A model generated the notes under the pieces. That model searched no databases and had not been told where the DNA came from. It saw only the letters and a program-made list of their open reading frames with translations. Below are positions 13,668 through 63,208 of a stretch of DNA of 64,000 bases, piece by piece. The stretch is taken from assembly GCF_004762035.2 (NCBI RefSeq), contig NZ_SIJK02000009.1:12181-76180 (forward strand), given 5' to 3'. Made by a program: the position numbers and the translations under genes. This stretch comes from Candidatus Chloroploca mongolica. Its GTDB lineage: Bacteria > Chloroflexota > Chloroflexia > Chloroflexales > Chloroflexaceae. Each line of letters starts with the position of its first letter. Within the stretch, counting starts at the first letter, position 1.

Positions 13668-13775
13668 GTTAGGGCGGATGCCCTAAAAACCCATGCGTGT
13701 GCTGGCGCAAGTGGCCAGCGAAGTTGACCACTTGCGCCAGCACACGCGAGCTTCTTGGGGGCCTACGGCCCCCAA
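13668..13775. repeat. Multi-hairpin intergenic repeat, copy 1 (downstream of leuD)
   Basis: Three palindromes in a row: TTAGGGC-ggat-GCCCTAA, then a 24-bp stem (13696-13719 with 13723-13746) closing on CCAGC-gaa-GTTG, then TTGGGGGCC-tac-GGCCCCCAA. The whole unit is repeated with changes at 14473-14574, on the other side of leuD. The remaining intergenic DNA (13557-13808) shows no gene. Confidence 0.85.
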
Positions 13776-13808
13776 ACCCTCAGCCAGAGGCTTGCGCCAG
13801 CATCATGT

Positions 13809-14417
13809 TTAGAGGTGGGTATTCAGGGTGATCGGGCTCGCGGCTTCGTAGCTGCGTACGTCCTCGTCCTGTTGCATCAGGAAGCCGAGTTGATCGATCC
13901 CGTTGAGCAGGCAGTGACGGGCAAAGTTGTCGATGGGGAAGGCGACTGCGCGCCCCCCCGGCAAGATGACCTGCTGGGCCGCGAGGTCAATGGTCACCGA
14001 GGTTTCGGGGTCTTCTTCGATGTGACTCAAGAGTTCGTGGTAGGTCTCTTCATCAACTGTTACCGGCAACAGGCCAATTTTCAAGGCATTGCCACGAAAG
14101 ATGTCGGCAAAATAGGGCGAGATGATCGCCTTGAAGCCATAGCCGGCCAGCGCCCACGGTGCGTGCTCGCGCGAACTGCCACAGCCAAAATTGCGCCCGG
14201 CGACAAGCACGCTTGCGCCGGCTGCCTCGGGGCGATTCAGGGCAAAATCGGGGTTGGGCGTGCCATCTGGCAGATACCGCCAGACCGTAAAGAGCCCTTC
14301 GGCCAGTCCACTCTTGTCGGTTACTTTCAGATATTTGGCTGGGATCACCTGATCGGTATCGACATTATCAAGCGGCAACGCAACCGCCTTGCCGGCAAAG
14401 GTTGTGATCGGTTCCAT
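13809..14417 (-). CDS. leuD: 3-isopropylmalate dehydratase small subunit
   Basis: 202 residues from ATG 14417 (MEPITTFAGKAV); a longer frame to 14468 reads into a hairpin and is unlikely. It shows the LeuD swivel-domain motifs LPLDNVDTDQVIPAKYLK and GRNFGCGSSREHAPWAL, plus IISPYFADIFRGNALKIGLLP. With LeuC it interconverts 2- and 3-isopropylmalate, and it may also serve the citramalate route. It is the last gene of the branched-chain cluster and is flanked on both sides by copies of a multi-hairpin repeat. Confidence 0.95.
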   Translation of the reverse strand: MEPITTFAGKAVALPLDNVDTDQVIPAKYLKVTDKSGLAEGLFTVWRYLPDGTPNPDFALNRPEAAGASVLVAGRNFGCGSSREHAPWALAGYGFKAIISPYFADIFRGNALKIGLLPVTVDEETYHELLSHIEEDPETSVTIDLAAQQVILPGGRAVAFPIDNFARHCLLNGIDQLGFLMQQDEDVRSYEAASPITLNTHL

Positions 14418-14439
14418 GTGGTGTCGTCTCGCTTTCTTT

Positions 14440-14466
14440 GCGCATGGGGCCACAGGCCCCATGCGC
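14440..14466. repeat. Perfect 12-bp inverted repeat with three-base loop, upstream of leuD
   Basis: GCGCATGGGGCC-aca-GGCCCCATGCGC, 22 bases before the leuD start. It is one of several intergenic hairpins in the cluster. Confidence 0.85.
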
Positions 14467-14472
14467 ATGAAC

Positions 14473-14574
14473 GTTAGGGCTGACGCCCTACAAACCCGTG
14501 TGTATGCTGGCGCAAACGGCCAGCGAAGCTGGCCGTTTGCGCCAGCATGCGAGATGTTTGGGGGCCGCAGGCCC
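14473..14574. repeat. Multi-hairpin intergenic repeat, copy 2 (leuC-leuD gap)
   Basis: Same layout as 13668-13775: TTAGGGC-tgac-GCCCTA, a perfect 21-bp stem (14504-14524 with 14528-14548) on the apex GGCCAGC-gaa-GCTGGCC, then GGGCC-gca-GGCCC. It lies inside the operon between leuC and leuD, so it could set the relative amount of leuD message. Confidence 0.85.
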
Positions 14575-14609
14575 TATGTACACGAACATTAGGGCGGCAG
14601 GCCTTGTCA

Positions 14610-16028
<1,419 letters not shown>

Positions 16029-16082
16029 TGATTTGCTTTCTAGGTAGTTACCGCTGCGTCGAAAACGGACAAGTTCTGTGAC

Positions 16083-17675: not shown

Positions 17676-17712
17676 GGCCTTGTCTCCAATCTCTGTTGGG
17701 CCAGGGTAGAGC

Positions 17713-18546: not shown

Positions 18547-18561
18547 AGGTTATTTCGCTTC

Positions 18562-18604
18562 TTCAGACCAATACGACTAGCGAAACTAGCCGTATTGGTC
18601 TGAA
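18562..18604. repeat. Inverted repeat in the leuA-pheA gap
   Basis: About 20-bp arms (TTCAGACCAATACG on the outside) meet on the apex CTAGC-gaa-ACTAG, a variant of the CCAGC-NNN-GCTGG apex seen elsewhere. It fills nearly the whole gap between the leuA stop and the pheA start. Confidence 0.8.
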
Positions 18605-18610
18605 ACAGCA

Positions 18611-20293: not shown

Positions 20294-20318
20294 ATCACCT
20301 CTCTTTAGCTTGATCTAC

Positions 20319-20516
20319 ACTTATTGGTCTGGGAACAAGGTTTCCTGGTATGCTGGAGTGCCGGCTTTAGCCGGCTGAAGCCGGCACTCCCTTCGGCAGC
20401 AGAGCAGAAAGCTTATTTCACAGACTACTTATTGGTCTGGGAAGTAAGTTTTCTGGCTTTCCTGGGTACGCGGGCGTCCCGCCCGCTGTTGCTCCCGAAG
20501 CGGGCGGGACGCCCGC
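20319..20516. repeat. Repeat-rich ilvC-leuA gap: 17-bp duplication and two hairpins
   Basis: The 17-base string ACTTATTGGTCTGGGAA occurs at 20319-20335 and again at 20427-20443. Each copy is followed by a hairpin: GGAGTGCCGGCTT (20355-20367) with 20378-20390, and a GC-rich 17-bp stem GCGGGCGTCCCGCCCGC (20470-20486) with 20500-20516. No reading frame in 20294-20539 looks real. Confidence 0.8.
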
Positions 20517-20539
20517 GCTCCCAGGCTAGCTCCCCGCGC

Positions 20540-21710: not shown

Positions 21711-21762
21711 CGCCGTCTTTGGGTAAGGGCGCAGCGCGCTGCGCCCTTACCCAAAGACGGCG
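21711..21762. repeat. Perfect 25-bp inverted repeat in the ilvN-ilvC gap
   Basis: Arms 21711-21735 and 21738-21762 pair without mismatch around GCAGC-gc-GCTGC. The rest of 21563-21799 shows no gene; a short GGGCTAGCGCCC palindrome lies near 21650. Confidence 0.85.
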
Positions 21763-21799
21763 GTTGAAGCCAAAACTTCAACCGCCGTTGTCTGACGCC

Positions 21800-24588: not shown

Positions 24589-24649
24589 ATAACCCCGTTC
24601 CTTGCGAAAAAGCCAGCAACGCTGGCTTTTTCGCAAGGAACGGGGTTAT
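24589..24649. repeat. Perfect 29-bp inverted repeat at the galT 3' end
   Basis: Arms 24589-24617 and 24621-24649 pair without mismatch around GCCAGC-aac-GCTGGC. The inner arm carries AAAAA/TTTTT. The repeat includes the galT stop codon and probably ends galT transcription. It belongs to the shared-apex hairpin family. Confidence 0.9.
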
Positions 24650-33958: not shown

Positions 33959-33997
33959 CTCTTTCAGGATGCCAGCGAGGCTGGCATCCTGAAAGAG
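33959..33997. repeat. Perfect 18-bp inverted repeat at the coxL-like gene 3' end
   Basis: CTCTTTCAGGATGCCAGC-gag-GCTGGC and onward, arms 33959-33976 and 33980-33997, beginning five bases after the stop. Shared-apex family; probable terminator for the plus-strand gene. Confidence 0.85.
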
Positions 33998-34703: not shown

Positions 34704-34804
34704 GGCTACCTCCTCGTACGCCATGCTGGCACCATTGGTCTCATGTGCCATTGCCAGCAATGGATTGATAACAACATTGTACTATAGCATAGATGCTTGA
34801 TTTT

Positions 34805-34847
34805 GTTTGGTTCATTTTGGCGGCGAAGCCGCCAAAATGAACCAAAC
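34805..34847. repeat. Perfect 20-bp inverted repeat with GAA loop
   Basis: GTTTGGTTCATTTTGGCGGC-gaa-GCCGCC and onward, arms 34805-34824 and 34828-34847. The hairpin and the following ACTGGGGTTTGGGGCGCA recur at 48383-48447, so this is a dispersed element. Confidence 0.85.
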
Positions 34848-34892
34848 ACTGGGGTTTGGGGCGCACTGGCAGCGGGGGGTGGGCGTATCCAG

Positions 34893-44649: not shown

Positions 44650-44664
44650 ACAAGCACTTTTTCT

Positions 44665-44707
44665 TGCGCGTGAAAAAAGCCAGCGTAGCTGGCTTTTTTC
44701 CCGCGCA
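44665..44707. repeat. Inverted repeat after the nucleotidyltransferase gene
   Basis: Arms 44665-44684 and 44688-44707 pair except for two central positions, closing on AAAAAAGCCAGC-gta-GCTGGCTTTTTT. The T run makes it a likely intrinsic terminator on the plus strand. No gene is visible in 44708-44917. Confidence 0.9.
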
Positions 44708-44917
44708 AACATGACTCTCCGTACTTTTCGCCAGGTCTTTTGCCAAGATCGCACGGTTGTATCCCGTATTCCTACGGATAGACGCGGCTTGCCGGTGTGC
44801 GTACACTGAAGATGTCTGAAGTACGCTCACCTCTTTATTCCCCTCGTACCTTCCCAGAGTTCACTTCATACAATGCAAAGGCACACTTCTTGGCTGTACC
44901 TGGATTGGAGAAGGCTC

Positions 44918-45922: not shown

Positions 45923-45952
45923 TATACGCACAGATCGTGAACATCCTATCAG

Positions 45953-45999
45953 GGGCGAAACAGGGTTGGTCTCGTATTGAGACCCGCGTTGTTTCGCCC
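45953..45999. terminator. Hairpin between the GGDEF-like and caspase-like genes
   Basis: GGGCGAAACA (45953-45962) pairs with TGTTTCGCCC (45990-45999), and inside it GGTCTC-gtatt-GAGACC (45968-45984) forms a second stem. It probably separates the two plus-strand genes. Confidence 0.65.
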
Positions 46000-46065
46000 T
46001 TGCTGGTCATGCTCTGCTGGAAGGTAGTGGGGCCTTCACGATCGTTTTGCCAAAGGGGTAGTTCT

Positions 46066-48267: not shown

Positions 48268-48270
48268 AAA

Positions 48271-48317
48271 GACGCAGAACGCCCCTGTCAGCAAAGCTGG
48301 CAGGGGCGTTCTGCGTC
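48271..48317. repeat. 22-bp inverted repeat after the caspase-like gene
   Basis: GACGCAGAACGCCCCTGTCAGC-aaa-GCTGGC and onward, arms 48271-48292 and 48296-48317, with one G-T pair. It begins three bases after the stop codon. Shared-apex family; probable terminator. Confidence 0.85.
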
Positions 48318-48328
48318 GCCAGGGCTGC

Positions 48329-48378
48329 TGCAAAGTTCGCCTCCGGCGGTGGGGTGTGGAGCGGCTTCACCGCTCCAC
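48329..48378. repeat. REP-like element, copy 2
   Basis: TGCAAAGTTCGCCTCCGGCG, then GTGGGGTGTGGAGCGG and the hairpin GGAGCGGcttcaCCGCTCC. It matches 34002-34050 closely. The 311-base gap 48268-48578 contains three repeats and no visible gene. Confidence 0.75.
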
Positions 48379-48382
48379 GAGA

Positions 48383-48429
48383 GTTTTTGGTTCGTTTTGG
48401 CGGTGAAGCCGCCAAAACGAACCAAAAAC
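48383..48429. repeat. 22-bp inverted repeat with GAA loop, copy of 34805-34847
   Basis: Arms 48383-48404 and 48408-48429 close on GGCGGT-gaa-GCCGCC. The sequence and its 3' flank ACTGGGGTCTGGGGCGCA match 34805-34865 apart from compensated changes (for example TTCA/TGAA there, TTCG/CGAA here). Confidence 0.85.
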
Positions 48430-48578
48430 TGGGGTCTGGGGCGCAACTCCAACGACTTTGCTTCAGCTCTGTCTGCGTCTCTGGCAGTATGATCGTCAAG
48501 GAGTATCTGCGGTATAATCAATTAACACACTCTTAACATCACATCATCGTTTGTTAATCTAGCGCAGGTAACCTGAAG

Positions 48579-50549: not shown

Positions 50550-50599
50550 TGACGTGGGGCGAAGTCTGCCTGCCTTCGCCCCACGCGATCATCTTGCGT

Positions 50600-51166
50600 T
50601 CAGCCTTCGGTTGAATCATCTTCACCAAGGCTGGTGCGGATGAGGCGGGCCAGACGTTCGTGGGCCCGGTGTTGCAATGATTTGACTGCGCCAATGCTAC
50701 GCCCTAGTTGGTTGGCTGTTTCTTCGAGCGAGAGGCCGTAGCTATGGCGGAGTAAGATGACCTGGCGCTGGGCTTCGCTGAGGTGACCGAGCGCTTCTTG
50801 GAGGGCTGCTTCATTGATCCGGTCGGTAAGCCTCGTCTCGGGGCCTTCGCTGATCGCGCACCATTCGCTGAGTGGGGCTTGCTTGCGCCGTTTGTTGCGC
50901 CGCAGGGTGTCAACGGTGCGGGCGTGCGCAATGCTGTAGAGCCAAGATCCGATCGACCATCCCCGGTCTTCGTAGCGTTCGATGCTCTCGAGCATGCGTA
51001 AAAAGACATCAGACTGGATGTCGCGGGCGACTTCGGCGTCACCAATGCGATAGTAAACATAGCGATAGATCCCAGGTGCAAAGCGTTCGTAAATGGTTGA
51101 TAAGGCTTCGGGGTCGGCGGATCGCGCACGATGGACAAGATCCTCGGGGAGTGCTGCTGTGTTCAT
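50600..51166 (-). CDS. ECF-type RNA polymerase sigma factor
   Basis: 188 residues from ATG 51166; a longer frame to 51274 lacks a good site. Region 2 reads ALSTIYERFAPGIYRYVYYRIGDAEVARDIQSDVFLRMLESIERYEDRGWSIGSWLYSIAHARTVDTLRRNKR. Region 4 reads LGHLSEAQRQVILLRHSYGLSLEETANQLGRSIGAVKSLQHRAHERL. No region 3 lies between, as expected for ECF sigmas. No anti-sigma gene is adjacent. It ends close to the convergent GH67-like gene. The 207 bases upstream (51167-51373) show no other gene. Confidence 0.92.
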   Translation of the reverse strand: MNTAALPEDLVHRARSADPEALSTIYERFAPGIYRYVYYRIGDAEVARDIQSDVFLRMLESIERYEDRGWSIGSWLYSIAHARTVDTLRRNKRRKQAPLSEWCAISEGPETRLTDRINEAALQEALGHLSEAQRQVILLRHSYGLSLEETANQLGRSIGAVKSLQHRAHERLARLIRTSLGEDDSTEG

Positions 51167-51373
51167 GGTCGTCTCTCTCGCCAGATGAAGGATGCAAGGC
51201 TTGCGTTGATGCGTATCCGGGAGGTGCAAAGGCTTGTCTGACCTGACCTCCCGTATGCGAGATGCTGACGACACTGGCAGCAGTGATCAATGGATGCACT
51301 GCTGAGTATAGCGAGGGGGGCGTTGTGTTGGGGTTATGGATTTGTAATGAGTTAGTTCTGCGGCATGGGCGCT

Positions 51374-53368: not shown

Positions 53369-53385
53369 CGTTTTTCTCTTGACAA

Positions 53386-53459
53386 GCCAGCTACGCTGGC
53401 AGGTCTTATCATCTTGTGTGACAAACAAGCCAGCGTAGCTGGCTTGTTTGTCGCACAAG
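53386..53459. repeat. Two shared-apex repeats in tandem
   Basis: GCCAGC-tac-GCTGGC stands alone at 53386-53400. Thirteen bases on, arms 53413-53434 and 53438-53459 form a 22-bp stem with one mispair, closing on AACAAGCCAGC-gta-GCTGGCTTGTT. They lie between the LLM oxidoreductase stop and the carboxylase start, reading minus. Confidence 0.85.
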
Positions 53460-53486
53460 GAAACATTCCCGTGAGCCGCAGGCCCC

Positions 53487-54467
53487 CTACGTCAGCTTTG
53501 GCAAGATATGCTCGCCGAAGGCCCGAATCCAGGCCTCCTGATTGCGCCCGACGTTGTGGACATAGATCTTATCAAAGCCGAGATCGAGGAAGCCTTGCAG
53601 GTGGGCACGATGCTCGTCAAGGTTGGACGAGATGAGCACCCGCCCTTTGAAGTTTTCGGGGCGCACGAGACGGGCCATGGCCGCAAAATCCTCAGGACTG
53701 CGGACATCCTGTTTGGGGAAATTCATGCCACCATTGGGCCATTCAACCATGGCTGATTGCATCGCCTCTTCGTCGGTCTCGGCCCACGAGACGTGCAGTT
53801 GCAAGAGCTTGGGCATTCTGGCCGGATCTTTGCCCGCCTCTTTTGCCCCGGCGGCAAAGCTATCGAGAATGCCGCGCAGTTTGTCGTGGTTGGCCCCAGG
53901 CGTAATCAGGCCATCACAGGTCTTGCCAGCCCACTTGAGCGTCTGGGGGCCAGTAGCGGCGACATAGATTGGCAGCGGCTCTTCGGGCAGCGTCCAGAGC
54001 TGCACCTTATTCATCTGGAAGTAGCGTCCGCGATAACGGATCGACTTGCCGCTGAGTAATTTCTGCATCAACTCGGTCGCTTCTTGCAGCATCTCAAAGC
54101 GGATCAACGGCTCGGGCCATTCGCCGCCAACGACATTTTCATTGAGCAACTCGCCACTTCCGAGGCCAAGCCAGAAGCGACCGGGGAACATCGCGGCGAG
54201 GGTCGCGGCAGCATTGGCAATGACCGCTGGGTGGGTACGAAAACTCGGGCATGTCACACCGGGGCCAAAGTCGCCCTTCGTGACCATGCCAAGTGCGCCC
54301 ATCCAACTATAGGCATAGGCATTATGGCCCTGGGCAGGCACCCAGGGCTGAAAATGGTCAGCTGCCATCACGCCTTCAAAGCCATAACACTCGGCGAGTT
54401 TGCAATGCTCGATCAACTCAGTTGGGTGAAACTGCTCAAGTGCAGCAGAGAGGCCAATTTTTGCCAA
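53487..54467 (-). CDS. LLM-class F420-dependent oxidoreductase
   Basis: 326 residues from TTG 54467 (MAKIGLSAALEQFHPTELIEHCKLAEC), chosen for its AAGGAAG site; the longer frame to 54560 is read through a hairpin. The luciferase-like TIM barrel has GFEGVMAADHFQPWVPAQGHNAYAYSWMGAL, GPGVTCPSFRTHPAVIANAAATLAAMFPGRFWLGLGSGE and LPIYVAATGPQTLKWAGKTCDGLITPG. This is the F420-dependent glucose-6-phosphate dehydrogenase-like branch (TIGR03557 type). The cofactor is probably F420, the substrate unknown. Confidence 0.85.
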   Translation of the reverse strand: MAKIGLSAALEQFHPTELIEHCKLAECYGFEGVMAADHFQPWVPAQGHNAYAYSWMGALGMVTKGDFGPGVTCPSFRTHPAVIANAAATLAAMFPGRFWLGLGSGELLNENVVGGEWPEPLIRFEMLQEATELMQKLLSGKSIRYRGRYFQMNKVQLWTLPEEPLPIYVAATGPQTLKWAGKTCDGLITPGANHDKLRGILDSFAAGAKEAGKDPARMPKLLQLHVSWAETDEEAMQSAMVEWPNGGMNFPKQDVRSPEDFAAMARLVRPENFKGRVLISSNLDEHRAHLQGFLDLGFDKIYVHNVGRNQEAWIRAFGEHILPKLT

Positions 54468-54509
54468 AATGATCTTCCTTTCTTCAGGGCGGTGCTGCCA
54501 ACCACGGTT

Positions 54510-54584
54510 GCTTGCGCTGGAAAAAAACCAGCGTAGCTGGGTTTTTTCCAGCGCAAGCAAGATTCTCGGGGGCCGCAGGCCCCC
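54510..54584. repeat. 24-bp inverted repeat plus GGGGGCC-gca-GGCCCCC
   Basis: Arms 54510-54533 and 54537-54560 pair with one mismatch around AAACCAGC-gta-GCTGGGTTT. A second small hairpin (54568-54574 with 54578-54584, loop GCA) abuts the amidohydrolase stop. They separate the amidohydrolase gene from the LLM gene on the minus strand. Confidence 0.85.
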
Positions 54585-55769
54585 TTACCCTTCACCGTTG
54601 AGGCAACGCATCGCTGTGTCGCAGAGAATCGCCACGCCTTGTGGAAGGCAGGCTTCATCAATGTCAAAGCGAGGATTGTGGTGTGGGAAAGAAGTTGCCT
54701 CGTTGCTGCTCGACCCCAGGAAGAAGTAGCAGCCCGGGACTTTCGCCAGGACGGCTGAGAAATCTTCGCCACCAGTGGTGCGGAAGGTTGTATTGATCTT
54801 CTCTTCGCCGAGCACAGCTGCGGCTGATTGATAGGTAACGGCGGTTGGTGCAGGTGCATTGACGGTCGCATCGACCCCAAAGCGGATCTGGACATCAGCG
54901 GTGGCCCCCAGCGTCTGTGCAATGCCTTCGGCGACCTCGCGGACACGGCGGTGCAGCAATTCCTGGATTTCGGGGCTGAAGCTCCGAATCGTTCCACGCA
55001 ATTCGGCGCTTTCGGCGATGACATTGCCGGCCTCGCCGGACTGAAAGGCCCCGATGGTGACGACCCCCGTCTCTTCGGGGTTGAGATTGCGAGCAACGAT
55101 GGTCTGGAGGGCGACCACAATCTGGGCACCGACGAGCACCGCGTCGACCGTCTGATGCGGCTGGGCCCCGTGCCCGCCTTTGCCGTGGACAATGATCCGG
55201 AAGGGATCAGACGCTGCCATCAACGCACCGTCGCGGACGACCGCTGTGCCAAGCGGATGGCCTGACGAGACATGCAGGCCAAGGGCGATATCGGGTACCG
55301 GGCTTTCAAGGAGGCCGTCGGCAATCATCGCCACTGCGCCGCCCAGTCCCTCCTCGGCGGGCTGGAACATCAGCTTGATCGTGCCCGGCACCTGGTCGCG
55401 ATGGCGTGCAAAGAGCGTCGCAACGCCGATGCCAACGGCGACATGGGCATCGTGACCGCAGGCGTGCATCACGCCCGGTGTCTGCGAGCGGTAGGACACA
55501 TCATTCGCCTCATCGATGGGCAAGGCGTCCATATCAAAACGCAGGAGCACGGTGCGTTCGCCTGGCAGATCGCCCTGCAGGATGCCAACAACCCCCGTCT
55601 GACCAACGCCTGTCTGAACCTCGTAGCCCAGCGCATCAAGCTTTGCGGCGACGATGTTGGCAGTACGAAATTCTTGAAAGCCCAACTCGGGATGCATATG
55701 CAGGTCGCGCCGAATGGCAACCAGTTCATCATGCAGCGATTCGGCCTCGTGCAAAAACGGAACGGACAT
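54585..55769 (-). CDS. M20 family amidohydrolase (N-acyl amino acid / hippurate hydrolase type)
   Basis: 394 residues. The metal-site motifs are in place: RRDLHMHPELGFQE, LRFDMDALPIDEAND, GVMHACGHDAHVA, LMFQPAEEGLGGA and GLHVSSGHP. The lid domain has GGHGAQPHQTVDAV and the C-terminal TTGGEDFSAVLAKVPGCYFFLG. Such enzymes cleave acyl groups from amino acids or indole conjugates; the physiological substrate is unknown. The start ATG 55769 has GAGGAGCC upstream. It is on the same strand as the LLM and carboxylase genes but separated from them by hairpins. Confidence 0.93.
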   Translation of the reverse strand: MSVPFLHEAESLHDELVAIRRDLHMHPELGFQEFRTANIVAAKLDALGYEVQTGVGQTGVVGILQGDLPGERTVLLRFDMDALPIDEANDVSYRSQTPGVMHACGHDAHVAVGIGVATLFARHRDQVPGTIKLMFQPAEEGLGGAVAMIADGLLESPVPDIALGLHVSSGHPLGTAVVRDGALMAASDPFRIIVHGKGGHGAQPHQTVDAVLVGAQIVVALQTIVARNLNPEETGVVTIGAFQSGEAGNVIAESAELRGTIRSFSPEIQELLHRRVREVAEGIAQTLGATADVQIRFGVDATVNAPAPTAVTYQSAAAVLGEEKINTTFRTTGGEDFSAVLAKVPGCYFFLGSSSNEATSFPHHNPRFDIDEACLPQGVAILCDTAMRCLNGEG

Positions 55770-55849
55770 ACGGCTCCTCCAAGAGACTATAGATGCACAC
55801 GATTGAACCCTTCAAGTATACCATGATCGCTCACAGCTGATCCTCCCTG

Positions 55850-58537
55850 TTATTCCGTCGGTTGCAGCACCTGATGGAGCAGGTTCAACAGTCGTTCGGC
55901 TGTGAAGGGTTTTTGGAGAAAGGCGATCGGGCTGTCATCGTGAAAATGACTGGTCATCTCTTCGGTGGTGTAGCCACTCATTAACACCACTGGTAACGTG
56001 GGCCAGCGCTGACGTAACTGGTAAAAGACCTCTTTCCCACTCATCTGGGGCATGGTGAGATCGAGCAGGACAGCGCCAAGCGGTTGGGGCAGGTGATCAC
56101 AAATAGCGAGCCCCTGGATCCCATCGTTGGCGCTGAGCGTCCGATAGCCGCCCCGCTCAAGAATCCGGATCACGATGCTGCGCACATCACGCTCATCGTC
56201 AATCACCAGAATCAGCGGGCGATCAGGCGGTGGTGTTGGCGGCTTGCTTGGCCCTGATGGTCTAGACAGCGTCTTGAGGAAGGTTGTTCCCGCCTGATCG
56301 ACAGGCAGCAGGATGGTAAAGCTACTCCCCTTGCCCGGCGTACTCTTAACCGTCAACGCACCCCGGTGCCCGCGCACAATGCCCATCACCGCAGCCAATC
56401 CGAGGCCTCGCCCAGCAAATTTCGTTGTGAAAAACGGATCAAAAATACGTGACAAACTCGCTGATTCCATGCCAATCCCTGTATCAGTGACCATCAGACA
56501 AACATACGTACCCGCGGTTACCTCTGGGAACGTATGGAATGTCGCAAGATCGACTAACGTCAGTTCCCGCAGGAAGGTACTAATCGTCACCGTGCCTCCA
56601 ATTTCGGCCAGGGATTCGGCGGCATTGACAATCAGATTCATCACTACCTGGCGAATCTGCGCGGCATCGGCCGCGATAAGGGGCAGATCTGGGGTCAGTT
56701 CCTGGTGCAAGAGCGCCTTTTTGTTGACTGAAATGCGTAGGAGACCGATCATCTCAGCGACAACCGCATTGAGATCAAGTGGTTGCACATCGAAATGCCC
56801 GCGTCCGGCATAGGCCAGCATCTGACCAACCAGATCGGCCGCACGACGGGTCACAAGCTCAATCTCGCGGGCACTCTGGTACAGTTCGCTCTCTTGAGGG
56901 AGATCGAGGAGCAGCAGACTCGCATTGCCGAGGATCGCCGCGAGCAGATTGTTGAAATCGTGGGCAATGCCGCCGGCCATCACGCCGAGGCTTTCGAGGC
57001 GTTGGGCCTCAAACATTTTGCGTTCGACAGCGAGGCGGGCTTCTTCGGCGTGCCGACGGGCGGTAATATCTTGCCCTACCACTAGCAACTCAATCGGCTT
57101 GCCCCGCACATCTTGCCGCCAGGTCAGCGACCAGAAGAAGGTGCGTTCACTGTCATTGTCCAGCGCGATCGTTGTTTCCAACGAGAATGGCTGTGCGCCG
57201 GTGGTGGTTGTGCGCGCAAGTTCGACAAATGCGACACGGTCAGCAGGGGCCACAAACGTCCGCAAATAATCGCGTCCGAGCGCCGCTTCACGGGCCATGC
57301 CAAAGACCCGTTCAGCCTCGCGATTGAACTCGGTCACCCGTAATACAGGGTCAAGGCAGACAATGACACTGCCAGCCGTCTCGACCAGTGAGCGAAAGCG
57401 GAGGGCGGCATCCTCAACGCGGGCAAAGAGACGGGCATTTACGAGGGCGACGCTGATCTGATCGGCCAGAAGGGTGAGTAACTTGAGGTCATCATCCGAG
57501 AGCGCCGGTTCGCCTGAGGATTCGATACTAATAATGCCTGCGACCGGCTGATGTCCATAACGAATCGGCACAAAGATACCCTGGGTTATCCCGGGTACGG
57601 CATGCAAAAAATCTGGATCGGTCGAAGCATCACGCACAAAATAGGCCTTGCCATCGCGGACAGTGCGTCCGATCACGCCTTCGTTGAGCCGGATCACCGG
57701 TAAGACATGCTCGTAGCCGATCCATGTCTGCAGGTGCAACTCTTCACCTTCACGCAAATAGATGCTGACAAAGGTATAGCCAAAGACCTGGCTAATCTGG
57801 TTGACGACCGTTTCACAGATCTGATCAAGCCGGACTGACGTGGTAATCGCCTGCGCCACGCGCTGGATCGTTCCCAATTCAGCGAGGCGCCGCTGGGTAT
57901 CACGATAGAGGATCGCGTTGTCGACAACGACCGCAGCACGTCGGGTCAATTCCGTTGCCAGGGCCTGGAGCGCGGGGGTGAACTTCCGTCGCGACTCGGC
58001 CATCGTAAACGTGATTGCTCCCCTGGTTTGCCCACGGACATTGAGCGGAACGGTGAATGAGGCACACGGCTTGAGTTGTCGGATCAGTTCAAGATAGTCA
58101 TCATCAAACGTATGCTGGCCGAAGAAATGGGTGCTAAAGTCCTCAATCAGTTCGGGTTGGCCGGTCGAGATGACACGGGGAAAGAGCCAGGGGGCATTGG
58201 CAGGCAATTGATAACAACTGATGGTATCGGCGAGCGCCTGCTGATCCGGGCTGGCACAGACGAGGGCGAGGCGTCGTGGTACTGCAGAGGGTTCGGCGAG
58301 CGCGACGGCGCACCAGTCGGCAAGCAAGGGGACGGCGAGATGGGCGATTCGGCTCAGAACTTGCTCGTAGTCGAGCGATGAGGTCAAGACAACGCCCGCA
58401 GCGGCCAGAAAACGGGCCTGAGCATCATCCCACTGGCCTTCATCTGTCCTCTCTTCAGACCATCCATCTTCTAGTGAAGGTGTTAATGGTGTCATCATGG
58501 CGTCCAGGGTATTGTAACCAGGTTTTACGTGAGACAT
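55850..58537 (-). CDS. Hybrid histidine kinase: GAF, GAF, PAS, HisKA, HATPase, receiver
   Basis: 895 residues without membrane segments. Two GAF domains (about 40-220, LTSSLDYEQVLSRIAHLAVPLLADW; 225-385, TIQRVAQAITTSVRLDQICETVVNQISQVFGYTFVSIYLRE) are followed by a PAS domain with SVIVCLDPVLRVTEFNREAERVFGMAREAALG. The kinase part has LGVMAGGIAHDFNNLLAAILGNASLLL, a catalytic domain with NLIVNAAESL, and RIFDPFFTTKFAGRGLGLAAVMGIVRGHRG. A receiver ends the protein, with the phospho-acceptor Asp in AVLLDLTMPQMSG intact. Soluble location is expected. The upstream region is shared with the divergent DsbB-like gene. Confidence 0.93.
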   Translation of the reverse strand: MSHVKPGYNTLDAMMTPLTPSLEDGWSEERTDEGQWDDAQARFLAAAGVVLTSSLDYEQVLSRIAHLAVPLLADWCAVALAEPSAVPRRLALVCASPDQQALADTISCYQLPANAPWLFPRVISTGQPELIEDFSTHFFGQHTFDDDYLELIRQLKPCASFTVPLNVRGQTRGAITFTMAESRRKFTPALQALATELTRRAAVVVDNAILYRDTQRRLAELGTIQRVAQAITTSVRLDQICETVVNQISQVFGYTFVSIYLREGEELHLQTWIGYEHVLPVIRLNEGVIGRTVRDGKAYFVRDASTDPDFLHAVPGITQGIFVPIRYGHQPVAGIISIESSGEPALSDDDLKLLTLLADQISVALVNARLFARVEDAALRFRSLVETAGSVIVCLDPVLRVTEFNREAERVFGMAREAALGRDYLRTFVAPADRVAFVELARTTTTGAQPFSLETTIALDNDSERTFFWSLTWRQDVRGKPIELLVVGQDITARRHAEEARLAVERKMFEAQRLESLGVMAGGIAHDFNNLLAAILGNASLLLLDLPQESELYQSAREIELVTRRAADLVGQMLAYAGRGHFDVQPLDLNAVVAEMIGLLRISVNKKALLHQELTPDLPLIAADAAQIRQVVMNLIVNAAESLAEIGGTVTISTFLRELTLVDLATFHTFPEVTAGTYVCLMVTDTGIGMESASLSRIFDPFFTTKFAGRGLGLAAVMGIVRGHRGALTVKSTPGKGSSFTILLPVDQAGTTFLKTLSRPSGPSKPPTPPPDRPLILVIDDERDVRSIVIRILERGGYRTLSANDGIQGLAICDHLPQPLGAVLLDLTMPQMSGKEVFYQLRQRWPTLPVVLMSGYTTEEMTSHFHDDSPIAFLQKPFTAERLLNLLHQVLQPTE

Positions 58538-58637
58538 GATACAATCCTATAGGGATGTCAATCATGTCGCCTCTTAATTAAGTATAAACGGAAAGTTCGC
58601 TCTGATACAGGGTATCAGGGGCAAGAAGGGGGTCAAT

Positions 58638-59234
58638 ATGGCACAAGTGGCACAGGATGCTGCCGCGACGTCACGTGAATCTGCGACTGAACAGCTCAGT
58701 TTGTTAGAAGCGCTTACGGCAGCAACCCGTCATATTGCCCTGCTGAGTGCAATGCTTGCGACGTGCGGCAGCCTCTATTTCAGTGAAGTGTTACGCTGGA
58801 TACCTTGTGAACTCTGTTGGTATCAACGCATTTTGATGTATCCGCTTGCTGTTGTCTTGCTGGTGGGCATCCTGCGTGATGATCGGGGACTTGCCTGGTA
58901 TGTGCTGCCGTTCTCGCTGTCAGGTATAGCGTTGTCGCTCTACCATTACCTGCAAGTGATCCAGCTTATTCCGCCAGCGGCGTGTGTTGGTCTTGTTCCA
59001 TGTGGCATTGATTACCTAACACCTATTTTGACCGGGCCGCTCTCTTTTATCAAGATTCCGTTCCTGGCTCTGGTCGCCTTTGGGCTTATCAGTGTTATGC
59101 TGGGCAACTATGCTCTTGCAGGGGCACCGGTGCCTTCTGCTCAGGGTCGTCGTGGCTCACGCCTTGCGGCAGTGGTCATTGTGGTCGTGACGATCCTGGT
59201 CTTTGTGGGCCTTGGTCTGCTTGTTGGGCTTTAG
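58638..59234 (+). CDS. Disulfide bond formation protein, DsbB/BdbC type
   Basis: 198 residues from ATG 58638 with AGGGGG upstream. Four helices follow a cytoplasmic N-terminus of about 30 residues. The redox pairs are Cys57-Cys60 (PCELCWYQRILMYPL) and Cys116/Cys122 (AACVGLVPCGIDYLTP), as in DsbB. A fifth helix at the C-terminus (LAAVVIVVVTILVFVGLGLLVGL) is extra. It reoxidises an extracytoplasmic thiol oxidase using quinones. The DsbA partner is not adjacent; a thioredoxin-like membrane protein lies at 62.2 kb. Confidence 0.9.
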   Translation: MAQVAQDAAATSRESATEQLSLLEALTAATRHIALLSAMLATCGSLYFSEVLRWIPCELCWYQRILMYPLAVVLLVGILRDDRGLAWYVLPFSLSGIALSLYHYLQVIQLIPPAACVGLVPCGIDYLTPILTGPLSFIKIPFLALVAFGLISVMLGNYALAGAPVPSAQGRRGSRLAAVVIVVVTILVFVGLGLLVGL

Positions 59235-59295
59235 CGCCGTCGCCCTAAAAACTCCCGCTTGTGGTGGCGCAAGCGAGATGGGAGGAGAACAACAC

Positions 59296-61146
59296 ATGTG
59301 TGGTATTGTCGGCTACATCGGTTCACGTTCGGCAACGGAAGTTATTATTGGTGGCTTGCAGCGGCTTGAATACCGAGGGTATGACTCGGCAGGGATCGCG
59401 ATTTATGATGTCGAGGCCGGGCTGCAATTGCGCCGCAGTGTGGGCAAGCTCAGCAATCTGGTTGCTCGTGTCTCCCACGAGCCAGCCGTCGGAACCATTG
59501 GGTTGGGCCATACGCGTTGGGCGACCCACGGCGGTGTCACAGAGATGAATGCCCATCCCCATCGTGATGCCAGTGGATCGATTGTTGTCATCCAGAATGG
59601 CATCGTCGAAAATTATCTCGAACTCAAGTCGCGCCTCCTCGAACAGGGCGTACCGTTCCAGTCACAGACCGATACCGAGGTCATTGCACATCTACTCGCG
59701 TATCACTATCAACGCGAAGGCGCCCTCGCCCCGGCTCTCCGCGAGACAATGCTTGAACTGCGTGGTGGCAATGCCGTCGTTGCTTTCTGTATCCACGAGC
59801 CGGATCGTTTTGTTGCTGCCCGTCTGGGCAATGCTGGCGGGGTTGTGCTCGGTTCGGCCCAGGGTGAGCATTTTGTGGCTTCTGATGTTCCGGCGATTCT
59901 TGACTATACCCGTGACCTGATCTTTCTCGAAGATCGCGACCTGGCCGTGGTTAGTCGCGATGGCATTGCGATTAGTCGGTTAGATGGGAGCCAGGTGGCG
60001 CGCCCGACGGTGACGGTTCCCTGGGATCCCATTGCCGCTGCCCGTGGTGACTATAAGCATTTTATGGAGAAAGAGATCCACGAGCAGCCGCGTGCGCTGG
60101 TGGATGTGTTGCGTGGGCGGATCGATCACGAGGCTGGCCGCGTTGATTTAGAGGATCTCCGCCTCGATGACGCCGATCTGCGGCGCGTTGAGCGCATCTA
60201 CACCACCGCTTGTGGCACGGCATGGCACGCTGGTCTTGTCGCCAAGTTTATGATCGAGCGCCTTGCCCGGGTGCGGGTCGAGGTGGACTATGCGAGTGAG
60301 TTTCGTTACCGCGAGCCGGTGCTGGGCAAAGACTCATTGCTGCTGGCCTTTACGCAGAGTGGTGAGACGGTGGATACCCTTGCCGCGATGGAGCAAGCGC
60401 GTGACCAGGGGGTGCCGAGCGTGGCGATTGTCAATGCGATTGGCAGCCAGGCGGCGCGGGTTGCCGACGGTGGCCCTATTTATCTGCATGCCGGCCCTGA
60501 AATTGGGGTTGCTTCGACCAAGGCCTTTACTTCGATGCTGGTTTCGGCCTATCTCTTTGCGCTACGTCTGGCCCAGGCCCGCGGCACCATGACGCCCGAT
60601 CAAATCCGCCCGCACCTGCAAGCTCTGGTTGAGCTGCCGGGCAAGGCGGCCACGATCATCGAGCGGGTGCTCCCCCAGTGCGAAGAACTGACGGAACACT
60701 ATCACCGTGCCTCGAATGCGCTCTTCCTTGGGCGACAACAGAACTATCCAATTGCGCTTGAGGGTGCCCTCAAGCTCAAAGAGATCAGTTACATTCATGC
60801 CGAAGGTTATCCGGCTGGCGAGATGAAACACGGCCCGATTGCCCTGATCGACGAAGATCTGCCGGTCGTCTGCATTGCGCCACGCGATGAGATCTATCCC
60901 AAAATGGTCAGCAATATCGAGCAAGTGCAGGCGCGGCATGGCCAGGTGATTGCCATTATCACCGATGGTGACGACTTCCTGCCGACCAGAGCGCGTCATA
61001 CGCTCAGCGTCCCGCCGACGATTCCGCTGCTCCAGCCTGTCTTGACCGCGATTCCGCTGCAGATCTTTGCCTACACTATGGCCGTACGGCGTGGATGCGA
61101 CGTTGATCAGCCGCGGAACCTCGCCAAGAGTGTGACGGTTGAATAG
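59296..61146 (+). CDS. glmS: Glutamine-fructose-6-phosphate aminotransferase
   Basis: 616 residues from ATG 59296, required because Cys2 (MCGIVGYIG) is the nucleophile after Met removal; GGAGGAG lies at good spacing. The glutaminase domain has RLEYRGYDSAGIA, GHTRWATHGGVTEMNAHPH and NGIVENYLELK. Two SIS domains follow (TACGTAWHAGLVAKFMIE; LLAFTQSGETVDTLAAM; EISYIHAEGYPAGEMKHGPIALI), and the end DQPRNLAKSVTVE is canonical. It makes glucosamine-6-phosphate for peptidoglycan and glycans. The 61-base leader is too short to hold the glmS ribozyme. Confidence 0.97.
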   Translation: MCGIVGYIGSRSATEVIIGGLQRLEYRGYDSAGIAIYDVEAGLQLRRSVGKLSNLVARVSHEPAVGTIGLGHTRWATHGGVTEMNAHPHRDASGSIVVIQNGIVENYLELKSRLLEQGVPFQSQTDTEVIAHLLAYHYQREGALAPALRETMLELRGGNAVVAFCIHEPDRFVAARLGNAGGVVLGSAQGEHFVASDVPAILDYTRDLIFLEDRDLAVVSRDGIAISRLDGSQVARPTVTVPWDPIAAARGDYKHFMEKEIHEQPRALVDVLRGRIDHEAGRVDLEDLRLDDADLRRVERIYTTACGTAWHAGLVAKFMIERLARVRVEVDYASEFRYREPVLGKDSLLLAFTQSGETVDTLAAMEQARDQGVPSVAIVNAIGSQAARVADGGPIYLHAGPEIGVASTKAFTSMLVSAYLFALRLAQARGTMTPDQIRPHLQALVELPGKAATIIERVLPQCEELTEHYHRASNALFLGRQQNYPIALEGALKLKEISYIHAEGYPAGEMKHGPIALIDEDLPVVCIAPRDEIYPKMVSNIEQVQARHGQVIAIITDGDDFLPTRARHTLSVPPTIPLLQPVLTAIPLQIFAYTMAVRRGCDVDQPRNLAKSVTVE

Positions 61147-61167
61147 AGGGGTGCCTCAGCAAACACA

Positions 61168-61198
61168 AACGCGGTATCCTGTCAGAGGATACCGCGTT
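61168..61198. terminator. Hairpin between glmS and tRNA-Gly
   Basis: AACGCGGTATCCT-gtcag-AGGATACCGCGTT, 13-bp perfect stem (61168-61180 with 61186-61198). It lies between the glmS stop and the 3' end of the convergent tRNA, so it can serve both. Confidence 0.8.
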
Positions 61199-61203
61199 CT
61201 CAA

Positions 61204-61279
61204 TGGAGCGGGAGACGAGACTCGAACTCGCGACAGCCTGCTTGGGAAGCAGGTACTCTACCAACTGAGTTACTCCCGC
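61204..61279 (-). tRNA. tRNA-Gly (anticodon CCC)
   Basis: The minus strand folds as a complete 76-base tRNA with encoded CCA. The acceptor stem GCGGGAG pairs with CTCCCGC, the D arm contains AGTTGGTAGAGT, the anticodon stem is CCTGC/GCAGG with loop TTCCCAA (anticodon CCC, reading GGG), and the T arm has GTTCGAGTC. It has its own promoter upstream and a hairpin downstream. Confidence 0.96.
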
Positions 61280-61291
61280 ACTTGGGATGAA

Positions 61292-61320
61292 AGTATAGCA
61301 CCCACTGTTACGCTTGTCAA
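61292..61320 (-). promoter_or_regulatory. Promoter of tRNA-Gly
   Basis: Minus-strand TTGACA (61315-61320), a 17-base spacer and TATACT (61292-61297), 12 bases before the tRNA 5' end. This is a near-consensus sigma-70 promoter. Confidence 0.85.
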
Positions 61321-61328
61321 TGTTTCAA

Positions 61329-61343
61329 AGCTTCCGGGAAGCT
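61329..61343. repeat. Palindrome AGCTTCC-G-GGAAGCT, copy 2
   Basis: Identical to 24524-24538 including the two preceding A. It sits eight bases upstream of the tRNA-Gly -35. Confidence 0.7.
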
Positions 61344-61482
61344 AGGGCGATTGCATCATACGAAACCGGATAAAAAATACGCTCTCTGTGGCAGCATGTG
61401 CATGCAACCAGCGGCGCACACGGCGGCACCCGGCAACAACGAGGCACCCACAAGGGGTGCCCCTACAGGGCCGGGGGCCGGG

Positions 61483-61523
61483 CCCGGTGTACGGGCACCC
61501 CTTGCGGGTGCCCGTACACCGGG
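61483..61523. terminator. 18-bp perfect hairpin after the response regulator gene
   Basis: CCCGGTGTACGGGCACCC-cttgc-GGGTGCCCGTACACCGGG. It lies 19 bases downstream of the regulator stop (minus strand). The preceding 61425-61482 is also rich in short GC palindromes (for example GGGGTGCCCC). No gene is visible in 61344-61542. Confidence 0.75.
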
Positions 61524-61542
61524 TGCCTTGGCGGGGTGTTAT

Positions 61543-62223
61543 TCATGCCATCAGGCGGTAGCCGACCCCCCACTCGGTGAGGAGCAAGCGGGGCTTGCGT
61601 GGATCCTGTTCAAGCTTGCGGCGCAGATGCCAGATATAGACCTTGAGATAATCGTTGTCGCGGCTAAACTCCTGACCCCAGACCGCTCTGAGCAGGGTCT
61701 CGTGATCGACCACCGTACCGGCTTTTTCTGCCAGAATGATCAGCAGATGGTATTCGGTTGGCGTCAGATCAATCAGTTCACCGCGCACCATCACTTCACG
61801 CGCCTGCTGGTCAATGGTGACCTCCCCTTTGCCGGCGGTGAGGGGGCGGTACGAAGGGGGGACACGGCGCAAGAGGGCGCGGATCCGGGCGGCTAGTTCA
61901 TCAATGTCAAAGGGCTTGGCCAGATAATCATCGGCCCCATGATCCAGCCCGGTAATGATATCGTTGCTCTGCACCTTGGCGGTCAGCATCAGAATCGGCA
62001 ACTGGGAAAATTGCCGAATCCGGCGACAGGCTTCCAGTCCATCCATTTCAGGCATCATGATATCGAGCAGAATCATATCCGGACGCTGCTCGCGTACGGT
62101 GGCGATGCACTCTACGCCATTGGTTGCGGTCAGGACTTTGAAACCCTCGTATTCCAGGTTGATCCGGATCAAATCTCGCAGGTTCTGGTCATCGTCAACA
62201 ACGAGGATTGTACGCTTTTCCAT
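61543..62223 (-). CDS. OmpR/PhoB-family response regulator
   Basis: 226 residues. The receiver domain (about 1-120) has acidic VVDDDQN, the phospho-acceptor Asp in DMILLDIMMPEMDGLE, and the Lys in YLAKPFDIDEL. The winged-helix domain (about 130-226) has LTPTEYHLLIILAEKAGTVVDHETLLRAVWG and DNDYLKVYIWHLRRKLEQDPRKPRLLLTEWGVGYRL. No histidine kinase adjoins. It starts 15 bases after the J-domain/thioredoxin gene, so the two are probably co-transcribed. Confidence 0.95.
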   Translation of the reverse strand: MEKRTILVVDDDQNLRDLIRINLEYEGFKVLTATNGVECIATVREQRPDMILLDIMMPEMDGLEACRRIRQFSQLPILMLTAKVQSNDIITGLDHGADDYLAKPFDIDELAARIRALLRRVPPSYRPLTAGKGEVTIDQQAREVMVRGELIDLTPTEYHLLIILAEKAGTVVDHETLLRAVWGQEFSRDNDYLKVYIWHLRRKLEQDPRKPRLLLTEWGVGYRLMA

Positions 62224-62238
62224 GCGCTACCCCTGCTA

Positions 62239-63075
62239 TTATGGCGTCTCAAGGGCTGACGCTTCCCCTTTGAGCTCGGTAAAACGACTAACAATGTCAT
62301 TATACTTTAGCTCACTGATATGGACATAACGAATCTGCCCCTCGGGATCGATAAAGAAACTGGTTGGCAAGGGAAAGACGCGATAGGCATTGGTGATGTC
62401 ACCTTCAAGATCGAGCACAATGGGGAACGTCACCCCATATTGATCAAGAAAAGCCTGAACATCATCAGTATCCTGCCCCCGGCTCAACTCATCGCGCGTC
62501 AGGTTCACGCCGATGACCGCAAACCCCTGATCGCTAAGGTCGTTATGGGCTGCCTGCAAGGCGGGCAGTTCACGTTTGCATGGCTCACACCAGGTTCCCC
62601 AGAAGTTGAGCAGAATGACCTTGCCACGATACGCTTCCAGGTTGAGTGTGCTTCCGTCGAGCGTTGGCGCATCGAAGCCAGGGGCGGCTCGCCGCATTTC
62701 GGCCATCGCCTGGGTCTCGGGTTGGCTTTCACCACCTGTCATGATCCAGATCGTTGCCACAAGAATGATCGCTGCCAGGACACCTGTGATGGCAAACCCG
62801 ATTTCGCGTGGAGTCAGCCCCCGGCGTTCCCCACTATCGGTGGGTTGCTTCATCTGAAGGCTTGCGTCGTAGGCCTGGCGCTGTTGCGGATCACGTAAGA
62901 CCCGATAGGCGCGTTCAAGTTCAGCGCTGCGTTCGGTCGCGACTTTGACCAGTTCAGGATCAAGTTCGGTCACCCGTTCGGGATTGTACCGTTCGCGCTG
63001 GCGCGCATACGCTTCGGCAATTACGTCGTCGCTTGCCCCGGGTTCGATACCCAGGAGCGTATAATACGTTACCAT
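62239..63075 (-). CDS. Membrane fusion of an HPD-less J domain and a TlpA/ResA-type thioredoxin
   Basis: 278 residues from ATG 63075 (MVTYYTLLGIEPGASDDVIAEAY). Residues 1-70 follow a DnaJ J domain through helix IV (SAELERAYRVLRDPQQRQAYD), but the HPD motif that activates Hsp70 is replaced by Asn31-Pro32-Glu33. A membrane helix follows (EIGFAITGVLAAIILVATIWIM). The C-terminal thioredoxin domain reads APGFDAPTLDGSTLNLEAYRGKVILLNFWGTWCEPCKRELPAL with the CEPC redox pair, and PTSFFIDPEGQIRYV. The J part faces the cytoplasm and the thioredoxin part the outside. It could reduce cytochrome or other extracytoplasmic disulfides. Confidence 0.88.
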   Translation of the reverse strand: MVTYYTLLGIEPGASDDVIAEAYARQRERYNPERVTELDPELVKVATERSAELERAYRVLRDPQQRQAYDASLQMKQPTDSGERRGLTPREIGFAITGVLAAIILVATIWIMTGGESQPETQAMAEMRRAAPGFDAPTLDGSTLNLEAYRGKVILLNFWGTWCEPCKRELPALQAAHNDLSDQGFAVIGVNLTRDELSRGQDTDDVQAFLDQYGVTFPIVLDLEGDITNAYRVFPLPTSFFIDPEGQIRYVHISELKYNDIVSRFTELKGEASALETP

Positions 63076-63149
63076 ATCATATACTCCGCTTATCATTGTA
63101 GCATGAGCTTTTACCTTTTTGAACCCTCGCTTTGAGGTGGGGTAAAACT

Positions 63150-63208
63150 GGCTCTTCGTGAGGGGCACACAGCCAGCTTAGCTGGCTGTGTGCCCCTCAC
63201 GAAGAGCC
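63150..63208. repeat. Perfect 28-bp inverted repeat between the TPR and J-domain genes
   Basis: Arms 63150-63177 and 63181-63208 pair without mismatch around ACAGCCAGC-tta-GCTGGCTGT. It lies 33 bases downstream of the TPR gene stop (minus strand) and is one of the longest members of the shared-apex family. Confidence 0.9.

What the first reader, a model, noticed from the sequence alone, without database searches (positions are those of the whole stretch)
13668..63208. Family of long intergenic hairpins with a conserved apex and a three-base loop but unrelated stems
At about a dozen sites (13696, 14504, 18562, 24589, 33959, 44665, 48271, 53386/53413, 54510, 63150; related 21711, 34805, 48383) nearly perfect 18-29 bp inverted repeats close on GCCAGC-NNN-GCTGGC or a close variant. 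Stem sequences differ from site to site, while the apex is kept and the loop is three bases (GTA, GAA, GAG, AAC, AAA, TTA). Seen directly. Known background: d(GCGTAGC) and d(GCGAAGC) mini-hairpins with GNA loops are unusually stable. Most copies start within about 60 bases of a stop codon. The pattern (constant apex, private stem that is always self-complementary) is not what ordinary terminators or copied REP elements give. It suggests stems built by templated copying of the flank, for example hairpin-primed strand switching on a single-stranded end (inference).
Basis: partly seen in the sequence, partly recalled or inferred. Interest (0 to 1): 0.8.

Follow-up and report, generated by a model that had tools for sequence, protein, structure and literature searches.

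The report
Self-copying DNA hairpins behind genes
Many long hairpins at gene ends in a photosynthetic bacterium seem to keep their two halves matching because DNA copying rewrites one half from the other, so the stems change fast while the tip stays much the same.

Summary
CCAGC-NNN-GCTGG occurs 258 times in the genome against 25 for the reversed control. Perfect stems of 12 bp or more: 95 in 464 kb, none in 3 Markov controls. The genus is Candidatus Chloroploca.

I compared orthologous gaps of three species, 151 pairs. Both arms change together (205 base pairs) more often than one arm alone (120), at about the flanks' rate (9.1% against 9.6%). Of 22 changed triloops, 9 are exact reverse complements. 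Window 21711 is a polarised case: ten right-arm changes, copied from the left arm. A sister genus behaves alike; a small control genus does not.

Best reading: the CCAGC hairpins are bidirectional terminators (inferred) whose arms are homogenised, flipped and sometimes lengthened by template switching primed at the apex. Template switching at inverted repeats is known, also in bacteria; this density, rate and lineage restriction look new. The cause is open: SbcD, ExoVII, MutS and RNase HII genes are present.

The parts
13695..13747 (.). hairpin, stem 23 with 1 mismatch, 7-nt apex (GCGAAGT)
14504..14548 (.). hairpin, stem 21 perfect, CCAGC-GAA-GCTGG
18562..18604 (.). hairpin, stem 19 with 1 mismatch, decayed apex; a G002 hairpin with the same outer stem (C12 chunk 59346) ends in GGCCAGC-GAG
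21711..21762 (.). 26-bp perfect palindrome made on this branch from a quasipalindrome (16 and 17 of 26 paired in the two relatives)
24589..24649 (.). hairpin, stem 29 perfect, CCAGC-AAC-GCTGG; the two relatives have different stems on the same apex
33959..33997 (.). hairpin, stem 18 perfect, CCAGC-GAG-GCTGG, convergent gap; G002 ortholog has loop TTC and a changed stem
34804..34848 (.). hairpin that looks like a dispersed repeat (GGCGGC-GAA-GCCGCC); one co-changed base pair between species
44664..44708 (.). hairpin, stem 21 with 1 mismatch, AAAAAAGCCAGC-GTA-GCTGGCTTTTTT
48271..48317 (.). hairpin, stem 22 with 1 mismatch, apex TCAGC-AAA-GCTGG; G002 carries other hairpins in this gap
48382..48430 (.). 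hairpin of the same apparent dispersed repeat as 34804
53386..53400 (.). 6-bp GCCAGC-TAC-GCTGGC hairpin beside the next one
53413..53459 (.). hairpin, stem 22 with 1 mismatch, CCAGC-GTA-GCTGG
54508..54560 (.). hairpin, stem 25 with 1 mismatch, CCAGC-GTA-GCTGG
63149..63209 (.). hairpin, stem 29-30 perfect, CCAGC-TTA-GCTGG

Best explanation
Intergenic hairpins, most of them 3' of genes. The CCAGC-apex class acts as bidirectional intrinsic terminators (inferred). Their arms are kept complementary, flipped and sometimes lengthened by DNA template switching. During copying, a strand that has passed the apex folds back, its 3' end pairs at the stable apex, and synthesis copies outward along the other arm or flank before returning to the normal template. 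Switching onto the opposite strand across the apex inverts the loop. The innermost pairs are the primer and are not rewritten, which helps to explain a constant apex on changing stems. Shown: co-change, loop inversion, the position gradient, one clear polarised copy event with two outgroups. Inferred: that it happens in replication, the terminator function, the apex as primer.
For: (1) 151 ortholog pairs, 119 with homologous stems: co-changed base pairs 205, single-arm changes 120; about 7 co-changes expected from independent mutation. (2) Co-change 205/2254 = 9.1% against flank divergence 562/5873 = 9.6%, which unbiased arm conversion predicts; a small simulation needs conversion of a mismatch at roughly 30-100 times the per-site mutation rate to give the co-to-single ratio. 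(3) 38 pairs with triloops on both sides: 16 identical, 22 changed, of which 9 exact reverse complement (p=3e-11 against 1/63), 7 more within one base of it, 4 within one base in the same orientation, 2 neither. (4) Innermost 4 pairs: 20 co, 26 single; pairs 5-12: 101 co, 21 single (p=1.5e-6). (5) Window 21711: relatives have 16 and 17 of 26 paired, own 26 of 26, with 10 right-arm changes against 1 left. In G002 C1 chunk 74063, 12 outer pairs match the left flank of both relatives (0.83, 1.0) and not their right flank (0.5, 0.42). (6) Co-changes are transversion-rich (138:67; flanks 267:295, p=1e-6), not the transitions that G-U intermediates give. (7) Sister-genus pair: 33 co, 17 single, 3 inverted loops of 8 (two distinct sites); control genus: 4 co, 11 single, 0 inverted loops of 27 (both directions counted). 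(8) CCAGC class: 25 convergent, 32 tandem, 4 divergent gaps; at least 3 A at arm positions 8-12 in 45 of 61.
Against: Few clear extension events: a strict test found 4 of the 34 cases that passed its filter, with 23 where neither arm was conserved and 7 ambiguous; I reject one of the 4 as a deletion between CCAGC direct repeats, and 21711 was not among the 4 but was checked by hand. A cruder test found 9 of 310. Single changes at the looser cut-off lean to G-U over A-C (30 against 19), so some RNA-level selection is likely; at 0.8 identity or more it is 10 against 10. The transversion excess weakens at 0.8 identity or more (52:37, p=0.07). Pairs among three species share branches, so p-values are optimistic. 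Hairpins were chosen as perfect in one genome and found without gaps, which hides one-sided indels. The observed total change (14%) exceeds the simulated (about 10%). The control genus is small. No repair-gene loss found explains the rate.
Confidence: 0.78

Rival explanations
1. Ordinary intrinsic terminators whose pairing is kept by selection: a mutation in one arm is followed by an independent compensating mutation in the other.
For: Positions behind stop codons, A/T tracts, depletion of the CCAGC class in divergent gaps; G-U excess at the loose cut-off.
Against: About 7 co-changes expected from independent mutation, 205 seen; they run at about the flank rate; loops invert; co-changes are transversion-rich; hairpins in divergent gaps also co-change (17 co, 9 single); the control genus mostly conserves its hairpins. 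Does not predict the 21711 event.
Confidence: 0.08
2. Arms are homogenised by mismatch repair or nuclease processing of extruded cruciforms, with loop inversion by cutting and rejoining of the cruciform, not by polymerase switching.
For: Would also give co-change and loop inversion; the four hairpins folded as single-stranded DNA are very stable.
Against: Cannot easily create pairing against an unrelated flank (G002 C1 chunk 74063) or rewrite an arm with 9-10 mismatches in 26; inner pairs should be repaired as well as outer ones, but are not.
Confidence: 0.1
3. A dispersed palindromic element (REP/MITE-like) copied around the genome, whose copies have diverged.
For: A weak shared arm consensus exists; 7 of 61 left arms match one 23-mer at 18 or more positions. 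Other families in the window look dispersed (34804, 48382, 61342-61540).
Against: 42 of 61 arms match only 10-14 of 23, of which the apex gives 5; orthologous gaps mostly keep a hairpin in place while the stem changes (of 151: 119 homologous, 15 unrelated stem, 17 no hairpin).
Confidence: 0.12

Closest known systems
Quasipalindrome-associated template-switch mutation (Ripley 1982; E. coli thyA and lacZ; PMC7202029)
   Same: Imperfect inverted repeat made perfect by copying one arm; window 21711 is that pattern.
   Different: Described there as mutational hotspots at particular genes; here it appears at many intergenic hairpins of one genus, at an inferred 30-100 times the point mutation rate.
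Template switching creating and maintaining RNA hairpins (PMC8794818, PNAS 2022)
   Same: Multiple compensatory changes, stem extension and loop inversion are the footprints proposed there.
   Different: There in rRNA and microRNA genes, with loop inversion a small class (69 loop-inversion-only patterns against 9,406 single compensatory ones in its table); here in bacterial terminator-like hairpins, with flipped loops about as common as unflipped.
Inverted repeats of proteobacteria (Lavi 2018, not held; known to me from PMC8604942)
   Same: PMC8604942 says it suggests that template switching between short repeat arms is common in proteobacterial evolution.
   Different: Repeats there are more conserved than their surroundings; here the stems change at about the flank rate, both arms together.
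Arm homogenisation and spacer inversion in yeast genes (PMC8604942)
   Same: Same two outcomes; it cites bacterial data in which template switching favours transversions, as here.
   Different: [quoted passage not shown] cerevisiae evolution; here intergenic, found throughout the 1.28 Mb sampled.
Concertedly evolving coding palindromes of Nematomorpha mitochondria (PMC6649704)
   Same: Perfect long inverted repeats, arms evolving together, lineage-specific excess, cause unknown.
   Different: Coding and mitochondrial; no terminator position.
Bidirectional intrinsic (rho-independent) terminators
   Same: Position, GC-rich inner stem, A-tract/T-tract.
   Different: Stems often run on past the T-tract (157 of 235 are 18 bp or longer), and arms change at about the flank rate.

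Membership tests
Quasipalindrome correction by template switching | One arm changed at several sites to match the other | tested here: met
   Window 21711: 10 right-arm changes against 1 left, two outgroups; systematic search found few others
Quasipalindrome correction by template switching | Spacer (loop) inversion | tested here: met
   9 of 22 changed triloops exact reverse complement, 7 more within one base
Quasipalindrome correction by template switching | Arises in replication, depends on fork direction | not testable with these tools
   Needs reporter strains
Bidirectional intrinsic terminator | Located 3' of genes, rare between divergent genes | tested here: met
   CCAGC class 25 convergent, 32 tandem, 4 divergent (p=0.014 against gap numbers); for all hairpins the divergent depletion is not significant (34 of 228, p=0.19)
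Bidirectional intrinsic terminator | GC-rich stem followed by T-tract on both strands | tested here: met
   A 52-79% at positions 8-12 of the left arm; the consensus scan of 44000-63300 lists 54528-54540 on both strands, few of the other sites
Bidirectional intrinsic terminator | RNA 3' ends at the T-tract | not testable with these tools
   No RNA data
REP/MITE-like dispersed repeat | Copies similar along their whole length | tested here: not met
   7 of 61 arms match the 23-mer at 18 or more positions; the other 54 at 8-17

The most novel reading that the evidence does not exclude
Chloroploca and its sister genus carry a lineage-specific, hyperactive hairpin-arm conversion process that acts genome-wide, so that any hairpin with a stable triloop apex becomes a self-perpetuating element: it rewrites, flips and grows its own stem out of local flank, and the terminator role came second or is incidental.
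Probability: 0.22. Interest if true: 0.85.

Novelty: new variant of a known kind. Interest (0 to 1): 0.68.

Why it matters
Covariation of paired bases is commonly read as evidence of selection on RNA structure. Here covariation appears at about the flank rate, apparently as a by-product of copying, which could mislead structure inference and terminator phylogeny. Hundreds of natural replicate sites would also make template switching measurable outside engineered reporters: apex sequence, loop, position and strand can be compared across sites.

Tried and rejected
Loss of a suppressor of template switching: SbcD is found in 58 of 61 genomes (57 over its cut-off), ExoVII large subunit in 59 of 61, MutS in 60 of 61 (54 over its cut-off), RNase HII in 8 of 8 asked, the three Chloroploca among them each time (G002's MutS, split by an insert, is listed as not over the cut-off). 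RNase HII was asked because of a yeast abstract on RNase H2 seen in listings (PMC3820800). Presence of a gene says nothing of its activity. The MutS insert does not track hairpin enrichment (G005, G028, G032, G037 are enriched without it).

Rfam gave only the tRNA in the window. G002 C102 chunk 24398 looked like a fresh 25-bp hairpin, but its two relatives are explained by deletion between CCAGC repeats, so I dropped it. A survey of one stretch each from 20 relatives (252 kb in all, seven contigs under 5 kb) gave 8 stems of 13 or more, 3 of them in G028; too small for rates. A tRNA search in E. coli genomes was not used. In a Markov control of the window with loops up to 12, 1 of 5 runs gave one stem.
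Full report
WHAT IS THERE. The window lies in a 6.3-Mb genome of the genus Candidatus Chloroploca, order Chloroflexales. The two other genomes of the genus held, G001 and G002, have contigs whose lengths (104,824 and 129,172) match records of Ca. Chloroploca asiatica B7-9 and Ca. Chloroploca sp. Khr17; no call named the species of the window's own genome. CCAGC-NNN-GCTGG occurs 8 times in the window (shuffles 0.20) and 258 times in the genome against 25 for the reversed control. G001 and G002 have 234 against 28 and 226 against 25. Among the other 58 relatives enrichment is patchy: strong in G005, G028, G032, G036, G037 and G044, weaker or absent in the rest. In 464 kb of this genome there are 95 perfect stems of 12 bp or more with loops of 0-9, none in three Markov controls. 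With stems of 13 or more, the sampled parts of the three Chloroploca carry 16.6-19.2 per 100 kb. In 73 loci of at least 8 kb around one aconitase-family gene (probably leuC) from many taxa, 61 had no perfect stem of 15 or more; the two Chloroploca had 23 and 14 per 100 kb, one Flavobacteriales locus 14.

WHERE. With genes called by my own hexamer script, 228 of 235 hairpins (perfect stems of 13 or more, three genomes, 1.28 Mb) are intergenic: 72 convergent, 122 tandem, 34 divergent, against 109, 415 and 122 gaps of 40-1000 bp of each kind. The CCAGC-apex class is 25, 32 and 4. Hairpins with a neighbouring stop codon lie a median 18 nt from it; 160 of 194 are within 60 nt. Divergent depletion is significant for the CCAGC class (p=0.014) and not for all hairpins (p=0.19). 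Read outward from the loop, the left arm is C G A C C G/A and then A-rich at positions 8-12, so both strands have a GC stem followed by a T-tract, the form of a bidirectional intrinsic terminator. The stem often goes on beyond the T-tract, which termination should not need (inference).

HOW THE STEMS CHANGE. I aligned orthologous gaps of the three species, anchoring on 1.5-kb flanks. From 235 hairpins, 310 ordered pairs had usable anchors; counting each species pair in one direction leaves 151. Of these 119 have a homologous stem, 15 a hairpin with an unrelated stem, 17 no hairpin (a rerun with slightly different filters gave 119, 20 and 11 of 150). In the 119: 1910 base pairs unchanged, 205 changed in both arms to another Watson-Crick pair, 120 changed in one arm, 19 changed in both without pairing. 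Independent mutation would give about 7 double changes. The double changes come at 9.1% per pair; the 40-bp flanks differ at 9.6% per site (81 poorly aligned flanks skipped). Unbiased copying of one arm onto the other predicts the per-site rate, because half of all mutations in two arms are kept (my argument). A small simulation places conversion of a mismatch at about 30-100 times the point mutation rate by the ratio of double to single changes, though total change in the stems (14%) is above the simulated 10%. Selection with independent compensating mutations should run far below the neutral rate (recalled theory, my argument).

LOOPS FLIP. In 38 pairs with three-base loops on both sides, 16 are identical and 22 differ. 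Of the 22, nine are exact reverse complements, seven more are within one base of it, four are within one base in the same orientation, two are neither (p=3e-11 for the nine; pairs share branches, so this is optimistic). Selection on pairing does not predict this; strand switching across the apex does.

DIRECTION FROM THE APEX. The four innermost pairs show 20 double and 26 single changes; pairs 5-12 show 101 and 21 (p=1.5e-6). The innermost pairs, which would be the primer, are not corrected; those just outside are. Further out singles rise again (pairs 17-28: 44 double, 50 single), as expected if copying tracts end at varied points or the target stem is shorter.

POLARISED CASES. At window 21711-21762 the relatives have a quasipalindrome, 16 and 17 of 26 paired. 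Here all 26 pair; the right arm differs from both relatives at 10 sites, the left arm at 1. In G002 (C1 chunk 74063) twelve outer pairs match the left flank of both relatives and not their right flank (the alignment is gapped by an insert in G001). Systematic tests found few such cases: 9 of 310 one-arm-conserved pairs, 4 of 34 in a stricter test, of which I reject one; 21711 was not among them and was found by eye. At 24589 all three species keep the GCCAGC apex in the same gap with different stems.

SPECTRUM. Double changes are transversion-rich (138:67) against flanks (267:295, p=1e-6); single changes are transition-rich (82 transitions, 38 transversions). At stem identity 0.8 or more the double changes are 52:37, p=0.07 against flanks, so part of the excess may come from blocks of unrelated stem aligned together. 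PMC8604942 (passages read) cites bacterial data in which template switching favours transversions. In tandem gaps, single changes give G-U 30 and A-C 19 at the loose cut-off, 10 and 10 at 0.8: selection on the RNA is not excluded but looks weak.

CONTROLS. A sister genus (G028/G032, 400 kb; CCAGC apex in 5 of 74 hairpins) gives 33 double and 17 single changes, 3 inverted loops of 8 (two distinct sites), and of 38 pairs 17 homologous, 14 unrelated, 7 without hairpin. A genus of another family in the order (G038/G050, 420 kb) has 2.4 long hairpins per 100 kb; counted in one direction it has 16 pairs, no double and 3 single changes; with stems of 9 or more and both directions, 38 pairs, 4 double, 11 single, no inverted loop of 27. 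Double change per pair differs from Chloroploca with p=2e-10 (optimistic since that control counts sites twice). Flank divergence is 7.2% there, 9.5% in Chloroploca, 13.9% in the sister genus. The behaviour is therefore not shared by all terminator-like hairpins, nor tied to the CCAGC apex alone.

KNOWN OR NEW. Quasipalindrome correction and template switching are known (PMC7202029, first part read; PMC8794818, first part and passages; PMC8604942 and PMC6649704, passages; van Noort 2003, Ripley 1982 and Lavi 2018 seen only as citations; Lavi 2018 was sought and is not held). PMC8604942 says that Lavi 2018 suggests such switching is common in proteobacterial evolution. A survey of inverted repeats in 118,019 genomes (PMC13155455, passages) reports generally conserved arms and more variable spacers in bacteria; no word beginning 'chlorofl' occurs in its main text. 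Among the papers listed by my searches (capped lists, mostly open-access papers) I saw none on such hairpins in Chloroflexales or on template switching at bacterial terminators. I file this as a new variant of a known kind.

LIMITS. Only three related genomes and 1.28 Mb of them, so most changes are not polarised. Genes come from a simple caller. Hairpins were selected as perfect and ungapped. No RNA, read-level or bench data. The cause of the high rate is open.

Noticed in passing
L228:434-4681 (G000 C72:277933-282180): MutS is a 1415-aa frame with an insert of about 310 aa at profile position 603-606 (Walker A region by recall); Pfam Intein_splicing scores 33.0 bits, below its 35.8 cut-off. 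The same split shows in G001, G002, G031, G044 and G059. Probably an intein in a mismatch-repair gene.
   Followed up: partly
window 34804-34848, 48382-48430: Apparent copies of a dispersed repeat with a TTTTTGGTTCGTTTTGGCGGC arm and GGCGGC-GAA-GCCGCC apex; the second lies beside a GGAGCGG hairpin.
   Followed up: no
window 61342-61540: Another dispersed family (GGGCACCCCTTGCGGGTGCCC units) with many matches in G001 and G002.
   Followed up: no
window 13640-14600: Several short repeats around the hairpins (TTAGGGCNGNCGCCCTA, GGGGGCC...GGCCCC) in two successive gaps.
   Followed up: no
window 9928-11091: xseA (exonuclease VII large subunit) lies in the window itself, minus strand.
   Followed up: no
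window 45937-48267: Protein with a C-terminal DUF6345 domain (Pfam), next to a GGDEF protein.
   Followed up: no
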